Positions 5,504-32,115 of a stretch of 32,929 bases of DNA are shown piece after piece. The stretch is from Rubellimicrobium aerolatum (GTDB lineage Bacteria; Pseudomonadota; Alphaproteobacteria; Rhodobacterales; Rhodobacteraceae): assembly GCF_017872975.1 (NCBI RefSeq), contig NZ_JAGGJP010000023.1:1-32929 (forward strand). Direction: 5' to 3'. The translations under genes were made by a program, and so were the position numbers. Below the pieces are notes generated by a model. It ran no database searches. It was not told where the DNA came from and worked only from the letters and a program-made list of their open reading frames with translations. The stretch's first letter is position 1. The number at the start of each line of letters is the position of its first letter.

Positions 5504-5814
5504 AGCCCTACCAGCCCTGGACCTCGGCCGTGGCCTTCTGGACCATGATGGCCGAGGCGCAGATGGTGATGACGCTGCGGATGATGGGAATGATGGGCGT
5601 GCTGCCCGCCCACAAGCGCGAGAACCACACCATGATGGCCGAGAAGGCCCCCGCCTTCGCCGAGGCCGCGATGGCGGCGGGCGCGGCGATGATGACGGGC
5701 AAGAGCCCGGACGAGATCGCGCAGGCCGCCATCCGCCCGGTCGCGCGGCGCACCCGCGCCAACGTCAAGCGGCTGACCAAGCCGCGCGCGCCCCGGACGC
5801 CCAAGCCCTCCTGA
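5500..5814 (+). CDS. Met-rich small protein inside the urease operon
   Basis: 104 aa, ATG overlapping the previous stop by 4 bases. Two parts are visible: an amphipathic, strongly Met-rich helix at residues 10-35 ('FWTMMAEAQMVMTLRMMGMMG'-type composition), then an Ala-rich stretch ('EKAPAFAEAAMAAGAAMMTGK') and a basic tail rich in Arg, Lys and Pro. The pattern resembles small rhodobacter proteins that databases label, probably wrongly, 'antifreeze protein', and is loosely like phasin or polyhydroxyalkanoate-granule proteins; this is from memory. His and Met content could suggest metal interaction, but no nickel site can be read out. Real gene because of the tight overlap and conserved-looking composition; function unknown. 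Confidence 0.7.
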   Translation: MKPYQPWTSAVAFWTMMAEAQMVMTLRMMGMMGVLPAHKRENHTMMAEKAPAFAEAAMAAGAAMMTGKSPDEIAQAAIRPVARRTRANVKRLTKPRAPRTPKPS

Positions 5815-5896
5815 GCCGGCGGTTCGCGGGGTGCCCGGAAAGCGGGCGTTCCGCATCCGGGCGGGCGCGCGACGGCTGGAATCGCGGCGCGGGGCT

Positions 5897-5925
5897 TTGA
5901 CAAGGCGCGCGGCCCGGGGCCTTGT
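5897..5925 (+). promoter_or_regulatory. candidate internal promoter upstream of ureC
   Basis: TTGACA (5897-5902), 17 bases, then CCTTGT (5920-5925), about 30 bp before the ureC start. It falls in the only sizeable gap (141 bp) within the first part of the urease operon. The -35 box is perfect and the -10 box poor. It could give extra transcripts of ureC-E-F-G. Prediction only. Confidence 0.4.
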
Positions 5926-5955
5926 GGGGCCGCAGATCCCGAGGAGCCCGACCCG

Positions 5956-7665
<1,710 letters not shown>

Positions 7666-27270: not shown

Positions 27271-28227
27271 TCAGTAGCCATCCCACCATCGCGCCCGGTC
27301 GGACCAGGCGGCGCGGCTGGCGGACAGGGTGGCGCTCCGGCGGGCCAGGGACGGGGCGACCCGGGCGACGGCGGCCTTGAAGGCGACGCCGCCCCGGATG
27401 ATGGCGACGGCGAGCCGGCGCTGCCGGGCCGGCAGGTGCCGGCGGGCGAGGCGGATGCGGGCGGCCAGAAGCTGCATCTGGCGGGGTTCGTTGGGCTGCG
27501 ACGCGCCGGTGAGGTGGACGATCGTCGCGGCGGGCGTGAAGGCCGGGCGGGCGCCCAGGGCGCGGGCGCGCAGGCAGAGGTCGGCTTCTTCCCCGTAGAC
27601 GAAGAAGGCCGGGTCGAACCCGCCGAGCCGGTCCCACAGCCCTCGCTCGATCAGGAGGAAGCAGCCGGTGACGATATCGACCTCGCGCTCGTGGTCCCGC
27701 GCGAACCGGGGACAGGCCTCGGGGTTGGCGAGGGCCGAGCGCGGCCAGAGCGCCGCCAGCCCGAAGCCGTTGCAGAACAGGCTCCAGGGCGTGGCCCGGC
27801 GCCACAGCGAGGTCGGGTTGAGCCGTCCGTCGGCATGGACGGTGCGCCCGCCCCAGATCCCGGCCCCGGGCCGCCGGCGCGCGAAGTCGAGCAGGGCCTC
27901 CACCGCCCCCGGCGGCACGAGGGTGTCCGGGTTGAGGAGCAGCAGATAGGGCGCGGAGGACAGCCCGGCCGCGAGGTTGTTGGCCCGGGCGAAGCCGAGG
28001 TTGCGGTCCAGCGCCAGGAGCCTCGCCCGGGGGAACTCCCGCCGGATGCGCTCCGCCGAGCCGTCCCCGGAGGCGTTGTCCACGACCACCAGCTCGTGGG
28101 GGACCGCCGTGCCCGCCTCCAGGCTGGCCAGGGCGGCGCAGGTCAGGTCCGCCGTGTCGTAGCTGACGACCACGACGCAGACCTCCGGCGCGGATGTCTC
28201 GCGGTCCTGTCCCGTCGGTTGCTCCAT
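27271..28227 (-). CDS. GT2-family glycosyltransferase (rhamnosyltransferase-like)
   Basis: 318 aa. Inverting GT-A glycosyltransferase: 'VCVVVVSYDTADLTCAALASL', 'ELVVVDNASGDGSAERI', 'LDRNLGFARANNLA', the metal/nucleotide-sugar-binding 'LLLNPDTLVP', and the acceptor motif 'GGFDPAFFVYGEEADLCLRARALG'. The order fits the WcaE/RfbN-like group that builds O-antigen or exopolysaccharide. No membrane segments, so cytoplasmic. The start at 28227 is supported by GGAG 6 bases upstream on its strand; a longer in-frame start exists at 28290. Divergent from the radical SAM-NOS operon, with about 214 bp between. Confidence 0.9.
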   Translation of the reverse strand: MEQPTGQDRETSAPEVCVVVVSYDTADLTCAALASLEAGTAVPHELVVVDNASGDGSAERIRREFPRARLLALDRNLGFARANNLAAGLSSAPYLLLLNPDTLVPPGAVEALLDFARRRPGAGIWGGRTVHADGRLNPTSLWRRATPWSLFCNGFGLAALWPRSALANPEACPRFARDHEREVDIVTGCFLLIERGLWDRLGGFDPAFFVYGEEADLCLRARALGARPAFTPAATIVHLTGASQPNEPRQMQLLAARIRLARRHLPARQRRLAVAIIRGGVAFKAAVARVAPSLARRSATLSASRAAWSDRARWWDGY

Positions 28228-28441: not shown

Positions 28442-30007
28442 GTGCGGCCCTTGGCTCGAAGCGAGCGCCAGATCAGAGCCTTGCGCCCGGCCCGTCCGGC
28501 CGAGGCCGGGGAGCGTCCCGACGCCGTCGCGCCGGCGCTGCGCCGCCGCGTCCTGATGGTGGACCTGAACAACTTCGCCAGCTTCCCCACCCTGGCCATC
28601 GGCCTGCTGGCCGCGGCCCTTCGGAACCGAAGCCACGAGGTCCAGCTCATCTCGCCGCTCGCGCACGACGTCCCCGCCGCCGCGCGCGAGCGGCGCGAGT
28701 CCTGGCTCGACCACGCGCAGCGCCGCATCCACCTGTCCGACTTCCCTCCCCTGCTGTCGGTCCGCGACGGCCTGCGCTCGCTCCGCCACTGGCGGCAGGA
28801 GCGGCCCCACCCGGTCGTCCTGCGCGAGGTCGCCCGCGCGATCGAATCCCGCCCCGACGCCATCCTGCTGTCGGCCTATCTCCAGCACTTCAACACCGTC
28901 CGCGAGATCGGCCGCCTCGCCGCCGCCAATGGCATCCCCGTCCTGCTGGGCGGCCCGATGTTCAACGTGCCCGAGGTCGCCGAGGCTTGGCGCGGCCTGC
29001 CGGGCCTCGCCGGGGTGGTGGGCGCCGAGGCCGACCGCAGCCTCCCCGACATGGTCGAGGCGCTCTGCGCGGGCGAGGATGTCGGGCGGTTCCCCGGCGT
29101 GACCCGCCCCGACGGCGCGCGCGCGACGCCTGCTCCGCCGCTCCGCGACCTCGACGCCACGCCTTTCGCCGACTTCACCGATTTCCCCTGGGACCGCTAC
29201 CCGGTGCGGATCGTGCCGCTGATGACGGGCCGGGGCTGCCAGTGGGACAAGTGCCTCTTCTGCAGCGACGTGGTGTCGGTCAGCGGCCGCACCTTCCGCA
29301 CCCGGTCGGTCGAGAACGTCCTCCTGGAGATGCAGGAGCAGGCCCGGCGCCACGCGACGACGAACTTCCTGTTCCTCGACCTCAAGCTCAACTCCTACCC
29401 CGACATGATCCGCGGCATCGCCGAGGGGATCGGCGGCTACGTGCGCGGGGCCGAATGGATCGGGACGGTCCACGTGGACCAGCGCCGCGACAACGGCCTG
29501 TCGCGGGCCGACCTGTCGGCGGCGGTGGCCGGCGGGATGCGCCGGATCAGCTTCGGCCTCGAATCCGGCAGCCAGCGCCTCCTCGACCTGATGCGGAAGG
29601 GCTCCTCGGTGGAGCGCAACTCCGAGTTCATCCGCCACGCCCACGAGGCCGGGCTCAGCATCCGCTGCACCATGTTCAAGGGCTTCCCGGGCGAGACCGC
29701 CGAGGACATGGAGGCCACCGCCCGCTTCCTCGACGCCCATTCGCCCTACCTCGACCGCGTGCGCTTCAACGACTTCTCGCTCCAGGCCGACACGCCGATC
29801 TACCGGGCGGTCATGGAGAAGGGCGGGCAGGCCGGGTCGCTGGTCGTCCGCCGGACCGAGGACCGTCGCGCCCGCGCCGAATACCGCAACCCCGCCAACG
29901 CCGACCGCGCCTATCGCCGCGCCAAGGCCCGCGCCCTCGCGGCCGTCCACGGGATCAACCGCCGTCCGCTCCGCGACGCCGCGCGGCAGTTCGACGGGCT
30001 GATGTGA
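28442..30007 (+). CDS. radical SAM protein with N-terminal B12-binding-like domain
   Basis: 521 aa if started at the GTG 28442. That codon is only 1 base after GGAGG, so TTG 28451 (10-base spacing) may be the true start. Residues about 35-170 look like the Rossmann domain found before B12-dependent radical SAM domains ('VLMVDLNNFASFPTLAIGLLAAALR', 'GIPVLLGGPMFN'), but no DxHxxG cobalamin motif is present, so B12 binding is doubtful. The radical SAM core (about 255-450) has C266, C271 and C274 in 'RGCQWDKCLFC', a CX4CX2C spacing where CX3CX2C is usual; then 'LKLNSYPDM', 'ISFGLESGSQRLLDLM' and 'TMFKGFPGETAEDM', as in the Elp3/MiaB-like fold. Its TGA overlaps the ATG of the NOS gene (TGATG), so the two are translationally coupled. 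Substrate unknown. Confidence 0.85.
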   Translation: MRPLARSERQIRALRPARPAEAGERPDAVAPALRRRVLMVDLNNFASFPTLAIGLLAAALRNRSHEVQLISPLAHDVPAAARERRESWLDHAQRRIHLSDFPPLLSVRDGLRSLRHWRQERPHPVVLREVARAIESRPDAILLSAYLQHFNTVREIGRLAAANGIPVLLGGPMFNVPEVAEAWRGLPGLAGVVGAEADRSLPDMVEALCAGEDVGRFPGVTRPDGARATPAPPLRDLDATPFADFTDFPWDRYPVRIVPLMTGRGCQWDKCLFCSDVVSVSGRTFRTRSVENVLLEMQEQARRHATTNFLFLDLKLNSYPDMIRGIAEGIGGYVRGAEWIGTVHVDQRRDNGLSRADLSAAVAGGMRRISFGLESGSQRLLDLMRKGSSVERNSEFIRHAHEAGLSIRCTMFKGFPGETAEDMEATARFLDAHSPYLDRVRFNDFSLQADTPIYRAVMEKGGQAGSLVVRRTEDRRARAEYRNPANADRAYRRAKARALAAVHGINRRPLRDAARQFDGLM

Positions 30008-31290
30008 TGCTGCGGCGACTGGCGCGGATCGGCGTGGCCCGCGAGGACTTCGCCCGGGGCAGCAGCCCGCTGGCGCGGCGGCTGCGGCGGATCTCGGCCC
30101 TGGAGCGGCGCGAGGAGGCGCGGGCCTTCCTTGACGCCTACCACGACGCCACCGGCGCGTCCCGCGACCAGCGGCGGAGGCGCTGGGCCGAGGTCCGTCG
30201 CGGCCTCGCGCGCGAGGGGTTCTACGAGCACAGCCCGGCCGAGCTGGCCTTCGGCGCCCGCCTCGCCTGGCGCAACCACGGCCGCTGCATCGGTCGGCTC
30301 TACTGGGAAAGCCTGGAGGTGGTGGACGCCCGCGCCCTGACCTCGCCCGAGGCGATGGCCGGGCGCATCGCCCGGCACATGGCCGAGGCGCTGGGCGACG
30401 GGCGCATCCGCTCGGTGATCTCGGTTTTCGCCCCCGTGCGGGGCACCGCCCTGCCGGGCTTTGTCGAAAGCCCGCAGATCACCCAGTACGCCGGCCATGT
30501 CCGGCCCGACGGCTCCATCCTCGGCGACCGCCGGAACGTGGAGGCGACGCGCATCGCCCGCTCCTTCGGCTGGGCGGCGCCGGACGAGCCCGGGCGCTTC
30601 GACCTTCTCCCCTACTTCGTCCGCGACGACCGGGACCGGCGGACGATGTTCGCCCTCCCGCCCGGCACGGTGCGCGAGGTGCCCATCGCGCATCCCGCCT
30701 GCCCGGATCTGGCGGCGCTGGGCCTGCGCTGGTATGCCGTCCCCTGCGTGAGCGGGATGATCCTCACCATCGGCGGGATCGACTACCCCTGCGCGCCGTT
30801 CAACGGCTTCTACATGTGCACCGAGATCGCGTCGCGGAACCTCGCGGACCGCGACCGCTACGACCTCCTTCCCGAGATCGCCCGCGCCCTCGGGCTCGAC
30901 CCGGCGGGGCGCGACCCGCTCTGGCGCGACACCGCCCTGACCGAGCTCAACCGCGCCGTGCTGCACTCGTATCGCGCGGCGGGCGTGACCATGCTGGACC
31001 ACCACGCCGCCTCCGACCAGTTCATGGAGTTCCACGGCCGCGAGCAGGCGCAGGGCCGCCAGGTCGCCGGCGACTGGCGGTGGATCGTGCCGCCCCAGGC
31101 GGGTGGCGCCTGCGAGGTGTTCCACCTGAGGATGCGGAACTTCCATCCGGTGCCGAACTACTACACCAGCCGCGCCGACGATGGCCTCCGCCTGATGCCC
31201 TGGTATGGCGACCGCTACCGCCCGCTGCCCCAACGGGCGCTGGACCGGGTCCGCCGGCGCTGGAAGCTCTGGAGCCGCATCGCGTGGTAG
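30007..31290 (+). CDS. nitric oxide synthase oxygenase-domain protein
   Basis: 427 aa; bacterial NOS oxygenases are usually about 340-380 aa, so this has extra N-terminal sequence. NOS oxidises L-arginine to citrulline and NO using heme and a reduced pterin. Signatures are clear: 'WRNHGRCIGR' with heme-ligand C94 and W88, 'PQITQYAGHVRPDGSILGD', 'FDLLPYFV', 'RWYAVPCVSGM', 'FNGFYMCTEIASRNLAD' with arginine-binding E273, 'DHHAASDQFMEFHGRE', and pterin-stacking W359 in 'DWRWIVPP'. There is no flavin reductase domain, as in other bacterial NOS, so electrons must come from a separate partner not seen here. Substitutions from the usual pattern include F for W and C for G in the 'NGWYMGTEI' stretch. 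It starts inside the radical SAM stop and overlaps the next glycosyltransferase by 7 bases. Confident family call; that the product is NO is inference. Confidence 0.93.
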   Translation: MLRRLARIGVAREDFARGSSPLARRLRRISALERREEARAFLDAYHDATGASRDQRRRRWAEVRRGLAREGFYEHSPAELAFGARLAWRNHGRCIGRLYWESLEVVDARALTSPEAMAGRIARHMAEALGDGRIRSVISVFAPVRGTALPGFVESPQITQYAGHVRPDGSILGDRRNVEATRIARSFGWAAPDEPGRFDLLPYFVRDDRDRRTMFALPPGTVREVPIAHPACPDLAALGLRWYAVPCVSGMILTIGGIDYPCAPFNGFYMCTEIASRNLADRDRYDLLPEIARALGLDPAGRDPLWRDTALTELNRAVLHSYRAAGVTMLDHHAASDQFMEFHGREQAQGRQVAGDWRWIVPPQAGGACEVFHLRMRNFHPVPNYYTSRADDGLRLMPWYGDRYRPLPQRALDRVRRRWKLWSRIAW

Positions 31291-32115
31291 GCGGCCCGGC
31301 CTACAGCGTCGTCGTCCCGGTCCGCGACGAGGCGGCGGCGCTGCCCCGAACCGTTCCCGCCCTCATGGCCGCGACCGCCGGCGACTCGGCCGAGATCGTC
31401 TATGTCTGCAACGGCTGCCGCGACCCGAGCGCCGCCGTCATCCGCTCGCTCGCGCGGCCCGGGGTCCGGGTGCTGGAGATCGGCCCGGCGGGCAAGACCG
31501 GGGCCCTGAACGCCGGCGACGCCGCCGTGGCCGCCTTTCCCCGCTTCTACGTGGACGCCGACGCCGTGCTGCCCCCCGGCGGCCTCGCCCGGCTGGCCGG
31601 GGTGCTGGAGGCGGGCGCGGAGATGGTATCGCCCCGGCTGGCCTTCGACCTCGACGGCCGGTCGCGGGTCGCCTGCGATGGCCCGGACCTGGCTGGCGCT
31701 CCCCTACGCGCGCACCGCCGCCTTCCAGGTCGTCATCGGCCTCTCCCGCGAGGGGCGTGCCCGCTGGGGCCGCTTCCCTGCCCTCCTGGGGGACGACATC
31801 TTCATGGCGGCGATGGTCCCGCCCGAAAGCCGGCGCCTCGTCCCCGAGGTGGTCGCCGTCTCGCGCCCGCCCCCGGGCTTCCGGGCCTGGGTCCGCGTGC
31901 GGGCGCGCTGGCGCCGGGGGGAGCGCGAGCTGCTCCGGCTCGGCCTGCCGCGTCCCCGTCCTCCCGGCCAGCACGCCTCGCTCCTGGCCCGCTTCGCGGA
32001 CCCGCGGACCCTGCCGGGCGCCGTCCTCTTCGCCGCCGCCCGCGTCCTGGGCGACCTGCTCGGCCGCCTCCCCGCGCGGGAGCCGGTGTCGTGGACCCCC
32101 GACCGAAGCGGCTGA
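31284..32115 (+). pseudogene. frameshifted GT2 glycosyltransferase
   Basis: Starts at GTG 31284, overlapping the NOS stop. The N-terminal half reads in one frame: 'YSVVVPVRDEAAALPRTVPALMAA', 'IGPAGKTGALNAGD', and the DxD motif 'YVDADAVLPP'. Near 31677 the homology moves to another frame: 'MARTWLALPYARTAAFQVVIGLSREGRARWGRFPALLGDDIFMAAMVPPESRR', which carries the acceptor-side 'GDD' motif, ending at 32115. One extra base (or two missing) around 31671-31677 explains it. Together they would give about 277 aa, a normal GT2 length. It could be a real mutation, a sequence error or, less likely, programmed frameshifting. An ATG at 31678 could also make the second half separately (145 aa). Confidence 0.8.

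What the first reader, a model, noticed from the sequence alone, without database searches (positions are those of the whole stretch)
28442..32115. Operon coupling a radical SAM enzyme to a nitric oxide synthase oxygenase and a glycosyltransferase
Seen: three genes on one strand with start/stop overlaps (TGATG at 30005-30009; GTG 31284 within the NOS end), so they are made together. The NOS carries the heme cysteine (C94), arginine-binding E273 and pterin tryptophan (W359). Known: NOS-derived NO feeds nitration in thaxtomin (TxtD with P450 TxtE) and rufomycin biosynthesis, but those use P450 partners. Here the partner is a radical SAM protein and no P450 is present. Inference: this may be an undescribed pathway in which NO or another nitrogen oxide is used together with radical chemistry on a glycosylated product or a surface glycan. 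NOS in an alphaproteobacterium is itself uncommon to my knowledge.
Basis: partly seen in the sequence, partly recalled or inferred. Interest (0 to 1): 0.88.

Follow-up and report, generated by a model that had tools for sequence, protein, structure and literature searches.

The report
Radical enzyme paired with NO synthase
A nitric-oxide-synthase-like enzyme and a radical enzyme sit side by side as an inherited pair in scattered bacteria, usually next to sugar-attaching enzymes, which hints at an unexplored way of building nitrogen chemistry into a sugar-containing product.

Summary
Confirmed in outline, with one correction. Window 28442-31290 encodes a radical SAM protein with a B12-binding-type domain and a nitric oxide synthase (NOS) oxygenase with its key residues intact. 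The glycosyltransferase at 31284-32115 is not one open gene: its halves lie in two frames.

The pairing is not local. I found it at 20 loci, mostly alphaproteobacteria, with some beta and one gamma, two on plasmids. In 398 genomes of the phylum, NOS and full-length radical SAM relatives occurred in the same 3, one being the window's own. Twenty coupled NOS rows split from 11 uncoupled at 100/100. Both genes are under purifying selection. A glycosyltransferase lies within about 2.2 kb in 17 of 20 loci.

Best reading: a mobile biosynthetic module in which arginine-derived NO, or another oxidised nitrogen, meets radical chemistry on a glycosylated product. No product is known; the chemistry is inferred. 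My library searches found no description of the module. Nearest precedent: 8-azaguanine biosynthesis, where a NOS and a HemN-like radical SAM protein share a cluster, so the claim that known NOS pathways use P450 partners is incomplete.

The parts
28442..30007 (+). Radical SAM protein with an N-terminal B12-binding-type domain; Fe-S motif RGCQWDKCLFCSD (C266, C271, C274: CX4CX2C, one residue longer than the usual CX3CX2C, which is recalled)
30007..31290 (+). Nitric oxide synthase oxygenase; start overlaps the radical SAM stop (TGATG); cationic C-terminal extension after the NOS domain
   Evidence: PF02898 413.5 bits; C94, E273, R277, W357, W359 in all 20 coupled rows. Position 268 is Phe 16, His 3, Tyr 1 in 20 coupled rows, against Trp 8, Phe 2, Ile 1 in 11 uncoupled. 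Tail.
31284..31694 (+). N-terminal part of a GT2-family glycosyltransferase gene, start overlapping the NOS end (frame broken near 31652-31669)
   Evidence: Pfam Glycos_transf_2 41.9 bits; 51% identical to L004 11275-11628
31663..32115 (+). C-terminal part of the same glycosyltransferase gene, in another frame
   Evidence: No Pfam hit alone, but 53% identical to the C-terminal half of the intact L004 gene
27271..28227 (-). Second GT2-family glycosyltransferase, divergent from the radical SAM gene (start could be 28290)
   Evidence: Pfam Glycos_transf_2 60.5 bits; homologues at 4 further pair loci: L002, L007, L008, L013

Best explanation
Genes 28442-31290 encode an inherited two-enzyme module: a B12-type radical SAM enzyme and a NOS oxygenase made from overlapping genes. 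Most likely it serves biosynthesis or decoration of a glycosylated small molecule or glycolipid. The NOS, fed electrons by a general cellular reductase, oxidises L-arginine through N-hydroxyarginine to citrulline and NO. The radical SAM enzyme makes a carbon radical, or moves a methyl group, on the shared product or its sugar, and accessory glycosyltransferases (sometimes also a sulfotransferase or hexapeptide acyltransferase) finish it. Shown here: the gene pair, its co-occurrence in the genomes searched, co-divergence, selection, intact catalytic motifs, recurrent glycosyltransferase neighbours. Inferred from family knowledge: NO production and radical chemistry. Inferred only from gene context: that the two enzymes act in one pathway on a glycosylated product.
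For: Pair adjacent at 20 loci: window; 13 of 13 loci; L024, L025; plasmids L049, L050; L066, L067. The same 3 of 398 phylum genomes (own included) hold NOS and a full-length (61-100%) radical SAM relative; the other radical SAM hits at E up to 1e-20 are 26-36% identical and partial (that search scored at most 3 candidates a genome). 20 coupled NOS rows split from 11 uncoupled at 100/100. Distance correlation 0.91 over 16 loci, 0 of 2000 permutations as high; dN/dS about 0.14 for both genes versus L002 (NG86). Fe-S motif in 20 of 20 loci; NOS residues intact in 20 of 20 rows. A glycosyltransferase within about 2.2 kb in 17 of 20 loci, of four sequence groups, against 16 GT2 and 12 GT4 hits elsewhere in the 3.76-Mb genome, about 4% expected by simple density (hand estimate). 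Three-gene run radical SAM, NOS, GT with 4-base overlaps on a Novosphingobium plasmid. Best structural matches of the radical SAM model include AprD4 (solved with paromamine) and OxsB, which act on sugar-containing substrates (OxsB recalled).
Against: No product is known, and no biosynthetic core gene (PKS, NRPS, precursor peptide) turned up among the neighbours that I scanned; no conserved precursor-like small ORF was recognised in 700 bp on either side. Genes that decorate sugars are common, and the rest of each neighbourhood differs. B12 binding is untested: AprD4, the top structural match, is (recalled) B12-independent despite the fold. The NOS lies in two frames in L013. The genome-scale co-occurrence rests on 3 positives, one of them the genome that prompted the question. 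Co-divergence would also follow from joint inheritance alone.
Confidence: 0.5

Rival explanations
1. Substrate tailoring: the radical SAM enzyme first modifies arginine or an arginine-bearing molecule (for example C-methylation), and the NOS domain oxidises that modified guanidine instead of free L-arginine. NO may be a by-product or not formed.
For: Weak profile similarity of the radical SAM protein to peptide and protein C-methyltransferases (rSAM_ocin_1 95 bits, MJ_0865-type 78 bits, both far below cut-off). NOS pocket positions vary: window G250 is G, N, D or S in coupled rows, and position 268 is never Trp in the 20 coupled rows. That these positions line the pocket is recalled.
Against: Glu273 and Gln157 are kept in 20 of 20 coupled rows and Asn278 in 19 (Asp in L012), as expected for plain arginine. 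G at position 250 and Phe at 268 also occur in some uncoupled NOSs.
Confidence: 0.2
2. Maturation: the radical SAM protein modifies the NOS itself, for example its cationic C-terminal extension, much as MgmA modifies methyl-coenzyme M reductase.
Against: The extension's sequence is not well conserved in the beta-type and sphingomonad rows, and one row (L011) has no Trp; 17-20% identity to MgmA and TsrM does not tell substrate.
Confidence: 0.13
3. Signalling: the NOS supplies NO as a signal for biofilm or surface polysaccharide, as reported for Silicibacter; the radical SAM gene and glycosyltransferases are surface-polysaccharide genes kept nearby.
For: Silicibacter NOS is linked to biofilm formation (PMC9500659, passages); glycosyltransferases, sulfotransferases and RTX or VWD proteins lie near several loci.
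Against: Signalling does not explain why one radical SAM subfamily accompanies this NOS clade and was not found without it; no FNR/DNR-type TTG-N8-CAA box in 300 bp upstream at the 16 of 20 loci examined.
Confidence: 0.12

Closest known systems
8-azaguanine biosynthesis: NOS PtnF/8-AzgA with radical SAM 8-AzgG (Streptomyces; PMC7674941, passages seen)
   Same: NOS and a radical SAM gene in one cluster; its authors suggest that a radical intermediate made by 8-AzgG may react with NO-derived species
   Different: 8-AzgG is HemN-like with CxxxCxxC; its deletion only lowers the titre, and another group's pathway leaves it out (same passages). Here it is a different, B12-type subfamily, gene-overlapping or adjacent to the NOS, in proteobacteria
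Thaxtomin (TxtD/TxtE), rufomycin (RufN/RufO) and lajollamycin NOS clusters (PMC9500659 and PMC10831120, passages seen)
   Same: A dedicated bacterial NOS oxygenase sits in a small-molecule gene cluster
   Different: Those use a P450 to nitrate; no P450 was seen among the neighbours scanned or annotated here, and the partner is a radical SAM enzyme
Stand-alone bacterial NOS oxygenases (Deinococcus, Nostoc, Natribaculum and other loci compared here)
   Same: Same oxygenase family and catalytic residues
   Different: No radical SAM relative beside the 11 fetched; the coupled NOSs are a separate clade, without Trp at position 268 and with a longer cationic tail
B12-type radical SAM enzymes AprD4, OxsB, MgmA, TsrM (PDB 6fd2, 5ul4, 9ccb, 6wtf)
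   Different: 16-20% identity, CX4CX2C spacing, no NCBIfam model above cut-off

Membership tests
Nitric oxide synthase oxygenase (PF02898) | Full-length match to the oxygenase profile | tested here: met
   413.5 bits, profile positions 7-357 of 362
Nitric oxide synthase oxygenase (PF02898) | Heme-ligand Cys, guanidinium-binding Glu, pterin-site Arg/Trp (roles recalled) | tested here: met
   C94, E273, R277, W357, W359 in 20 of 20 coupled rows
Nitric oxide synthase oxygenase (PF02898) | Converts L-arginine to citrulline and NO | not testable with these tools
   Needs purified enzyme
Radical SAM superfamily (PF04055) | Profile match and three-cysteine [4Fe-4S] motif | tested here: met
   53.8 bits; three Cys in all 20 loci, but spaced CX4CX2C rather than CX3CX2C
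B12-dependent radical SAM enzymes | N-terminal B12-binding-type domain | tested here: met
   PF02310 37.7 bits over cut-off 32.1, profile 44-114 of 121; matches to OxsB and TsrM spanning the N-terminal domain
B12-dependent radical SAM enzymes | Actual cobalamin binding and use | not testable with these tools
   The fold can be present without B12 use (AprD4, recalled)
RiPP maturation C-methyltransferase rSAM_ocin_1 (TIGR03975) | Score above NCBIfam cut-off | tested here: not met
   95.2 bits against cut-off 281.85
RiPP maturation C-methyltransferase rSAM_ocin_1 (TIGR03975) | Precursor peptide gene beside it | tested here: inconclusive
   No precursor-like small ORF recognised in 700 bp upstream (16 loci) or downstream (17 loci); one upstream L049-L050 match (44% over 59 aa, E 3e-7) was not followed up
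NOS-P450 nitration clusters (thaxtomin type) | P450 gene beside the NOS | tested here: inconclusive
   No P450 among the neighbours that were scanned or annotated, but not every neighbour gene was scanned

The most novel reading that the evidence does not exclude
The radical SAM enzyme forms a carbon-nitrogen bond with NOS-made NO: it makes a carbon radical on a sugar or lipid-linked glycoside, which is captured by NO, perhaps delivered as nitrosyl-cobalamin in place of the usual methyl-cobalamin, giving a nitroso, oxime or nitro sugar. That would be a P450-free enzymatic nitrosation or nitration route.
Probability: 0.12. Interest if true: 0.95.

Novelty: new variant of a known kind. Interest (0 to 1): 0.75.

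Why it matters
In the papers that I saw, dedicated NOS genes in small-molecule clusters are tied to P450 nitration or to triazole formation. A conserved, apparently mobile pair of a B12-type radical SAM enzyme and a NOS, spread over distant proteobacteria and usually beside glycosyltransferases, suggests a different use of biological NO or of arginine oxidation. It gives a small, testable system (two or three genes, one copy on a 21-kb plasmid) for asking whether enzymes join NO to carbon by radical chemistry.

Tried and rejected
RiPP reading: no precursor-like small ORF recognised beside the pair (one L049-L050 match left unexplained) and radical SAM scores far under family cut-offs. NO-responsive promoter: no TTG-N8-CAA box at 16 of 20 loci, 4 not examined. 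Loss of arginine binding: considered from G250 and F268, set aside because Glu273, Gln157 and (19 of 20) Asn278 are kept. Membrane-binding tail: amphipathicity beyond shuffles (p < 0.05) in only 5 of 18 rows, so not claimed. The small membrane-type protein (A3) has no Pfam match (two members scanned) and no convincing PDB relative (one hit at E 0.79); it was not found in 61 family genomes including the window's own (a search without a positive control). W003's 170-aa gene in a similar position is unrelated to it by tblastn. The Foldseek 'pdb' search never ran; only the VIA-align second look did. My first gene caller missed genes in these GC-rich loci and was replaced. Two weak NOS hits (G279, G056; E 6e-5 and 8e-4, partial) were not counted. 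L013 and G275 share the same locus and are counted once. Other paper searches gave nothing further on the module by their listings.

What the 20-locus count holds: L013 counts as a pair locus although its NOS is in two frames, and it is not in the NOS tree; L014 gives two NOS rows; L007 has only the end of the radical SAM gene (contig end); L008 comes from a MAG labelled Kiritimatiellae, though its NOS groups with Rhodobacteraceae rows; the gamma class rests on one MAG (L012). Of 14 plasmid NOS records, 12 were fetched (2 coupled, 10 not); Natribaculum longum and Staphylococcus aureus were not, but the whole-collection radical SAM search (E 1e-20) gave no hit in them. A second NOS place in the Nonomuraea record was not examined.
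Full report
WHAT IS THERE. The window is contig 23, bases 1-32929, of a 3.76-Mb genome. Its nearest named relative at this locus is Rubellimicrobium arenae (83% identity for both proteins). Gene 28442-30007 encodes a 521-aa radical SAM protein and gene 30007-31290 a 427-aa NOS oxygenase. The third gene is not as described: the glycosyltransferase halves lie in two frames, while a relative in Cereibacter (L004) is one intact 279-aa gene matching both halves. A second, divergent GT2 gene lies at 27271-28227. Eight genes scanned between 15646 and 26627 look like a sugar-uptake and glycoside-hydrolysis set (GH4, AraC-type regulator, ABC transporter, GH2, oxidoreductases) and are probably unrelated.

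IS THE PAIR REAL? A close-relative search for the NOS gave 13 loci, and all 13 have the radical SAM relative directly upstream (60-83% identity; L007 only its end, at the contig end). That search favours close relatives, so I repeated it with the family profile. PF02898 was found in 1 of 385 genomes of the class, the window's own, and in 3 of 398 of the phylum: the window's own, G817 and G963. Both new ones have the radical SAM gene beside the NOS. Turned round, the radical SAM protein searched in 398 phylum genomes gave full-length relatives (61-100%) in the same three only; the other hits at E up to 1e-20 (20 further genomes) were 26-36% identical and partial (at most 3 candidates a genome were scored). 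In 9 genomes of pair loci the best other radical SAM relative was at most 31% identical. In 295 genomes of the window's family the NOS was found in the window's own and in G275, plus two weak partial hits that I did not count. Among 72,556 plasmid records 14 hold a NOS, and 2 of these the radical SAM relative: Jannaschia sp. W003, on a complete 21.5-kb plasmid, and Novosphingobium sp. ES2-1, on a conjugative plasmid. In 249 genomes of the G963 family three have the NOS, G963 included; the two new ones, G1096 and G1067, carry the pair. Total: 20 pair loci, namely the window, L002-L014, L024, L025, L049, L050, L066, L067. By record titles most are alphaproteobacteria; L009, L010 and L014 are of the beta group, L012 a gamma MAG, and L008 a MAG labelled Kiritimatiellae whose NOS groups with Rhodobacteraceae. 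In 199 genomes of the G817 family two have a NOS; the new one, G1385, has it in a longer open frame and no radical SAM relative in 13 kb.

CONTROLS. Eleven NOS loci fetched outside the clade (Rhizobium rhizoryzae, Deinococcus, Nostoc, Micromonospora, two Embleya, Nonomuraea, two Natribaculum, Rhodococcus, G1385) have no match to the radical SAM protein in the 9-13 kb held. In a tree of 31 rows, 20 coupled NOS rows separate from the 11 uncoupled at 100/100 (18 against 10 at 100/99). Jannaschia seosinensis groups with beta-proteobacterial rows, and Jannaschia W003 with L006-L008; with the plasmid copies this suggests horizontal movement. Pairwise distances of the two proteins over 16 loci correlate at 0.91, with 0 of 2000 permutations as high; joint inheritance alone would also give this. 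NG86 dN and dS versus L002 are 0.118 and 0.813 for radical SAM and 0.105 and 0.737 for NOS, so both are under purifying selection. The YN00 method failed in that script.

THE NOS. C94, Q157, E273, R277, W357 and W359 are kept in 20 of 20 coupled rows and N278 in 19. Residue 268, the Trp of the usual N-G-W-Y motif (Trp587 of neuronal NOS, recalled), is Phe 16, His 3, Tyr 1 in the coupled rows, and Trp 8, Phe 2, Ile 1 in the uncoupled: always changed in the clade, but not unique to it. A cationic tail follows the domain: 37-45 residues past position 388 and charge +4 to +10 in the last 20, in 18 of 18 rows that reach their natural end, against 1-27 residues and -5 to +3 in 7 uncoupled full-length NOSs. 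AlphaFold gives it a low-confidence helix at 407-423.

THE NEIGHBOURS. A glycosyltransferase lies within about 2.2 kb of the pair in 17 of 20 loci. Groups differ: one GT2 group in window, L004-L008 and L014; another GT2 group in window, L002, L007, L008 and L013; GT4 in L002, L009, L010, L011 and L049; another GT2 type in L025, L050, L066 and L067. In L050 the genes run radical SAM, NOS, GT with 4-base overlaps. The genome holds 16 GT2 and 12 GT4 profile hits outside this locus, so by simple density a GT so near is expected about 4% of the time (hand estimate; GT genes cluster, so this is rough). An uncharacterised membrane-type protein (alignment A3) lies near 8 of 20 pairs: L002, L005-L008, L014, L066, L067. 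Sulfotransferases are at L007, L012 and L013, hexapeptide acyltransferases at L005, L014 and L066, and a nitroreductase and a Crp/Fnr regulator at L049.

MECHANISM. The best reading is a biosynthetic module (confidence 0.5): NOS oxidises arginine, the radical SAM enzyme acts on a shared glycosylated product, and glycosyltransferases complete it. The step in which the two chemistries meet is inferred. Rivals are modified-arginine oxidation (0.2), NOS maturation (0.13) and NO signalling with surface-glycan neighbours (0.12).

KNOWN OR NEW. The library holds no paper with all of 'nitric oxide synthase', 'radical SAM', 'gene cluster' and 'proteobacteria'. Of the 23 papers holding the first two (listing seen), the only one whose listing concerned a shared biosynthetic cluster was the 8-azaguanine paper, of which I saw passages. 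'Cobalamin-dependent radical SAM' with 'nitric oxide' gave none, nor did 'nitric oxide synthase oxygenase' with 'alphaproteobacteria'. The NOS genome-mining paper PMC10831120 has no occurrence of 'radical SAM' or 'proteobacteria'. Most subscription papers are not in that library, so this is no proof of absence. I call it a new variant of a known kind: a NOS-containing locus of biosynthetic type with a new partner.

Noticed in passing
L014:5763-8274: Limnohabitans MAG carries a second, divergent radical SAM-NOS pair in tandem; its radical SAM-like gene (5763-6833) is shortened and lacks the three-cysteine motif, so it may be a dead or repurposed partner.
   Followed up: partly
L068:5079-7424: An uncoupled alphaproteobacterial NOS (G1385) lies at the end of a 781-aa open frame whose first part reads like a [2Fe-2S] plus ferredoxin-reductase-type electron chain (by eye, not searched), possibly a self-sufficient NOS.
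   Followed up: partly
L066:3364-3825 and L067:4100-4564; also L002, L005-L008, L014: Uncharacterised membrane-type protein family (alignment A3) without Pfam match in the two members scanned, near 8 of 20 pairs.
   Followed up: partly
window:32288-32929: RTX (HemolysinCabind) protein beside the locus; RTX, cadherin-like or VWD proteins also lie near the pair in L003, L024 and L049.
   Followed up: partly
L049:5795-7906: Crp/Fnr regulator and nitroreductase upstream of the glycosyltransferase, radical SAM and NOS genes on a 21-kb Jannaschia plasmid, possibly a self-contained pathway.
   Followed up: partly
L013:10001-11240: In Rhodobacteraceae bacterium QY30 the NOS gene is split over two frames; in L007 the NOS tail seems to leave the frame after 2076.
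   Followed up: no
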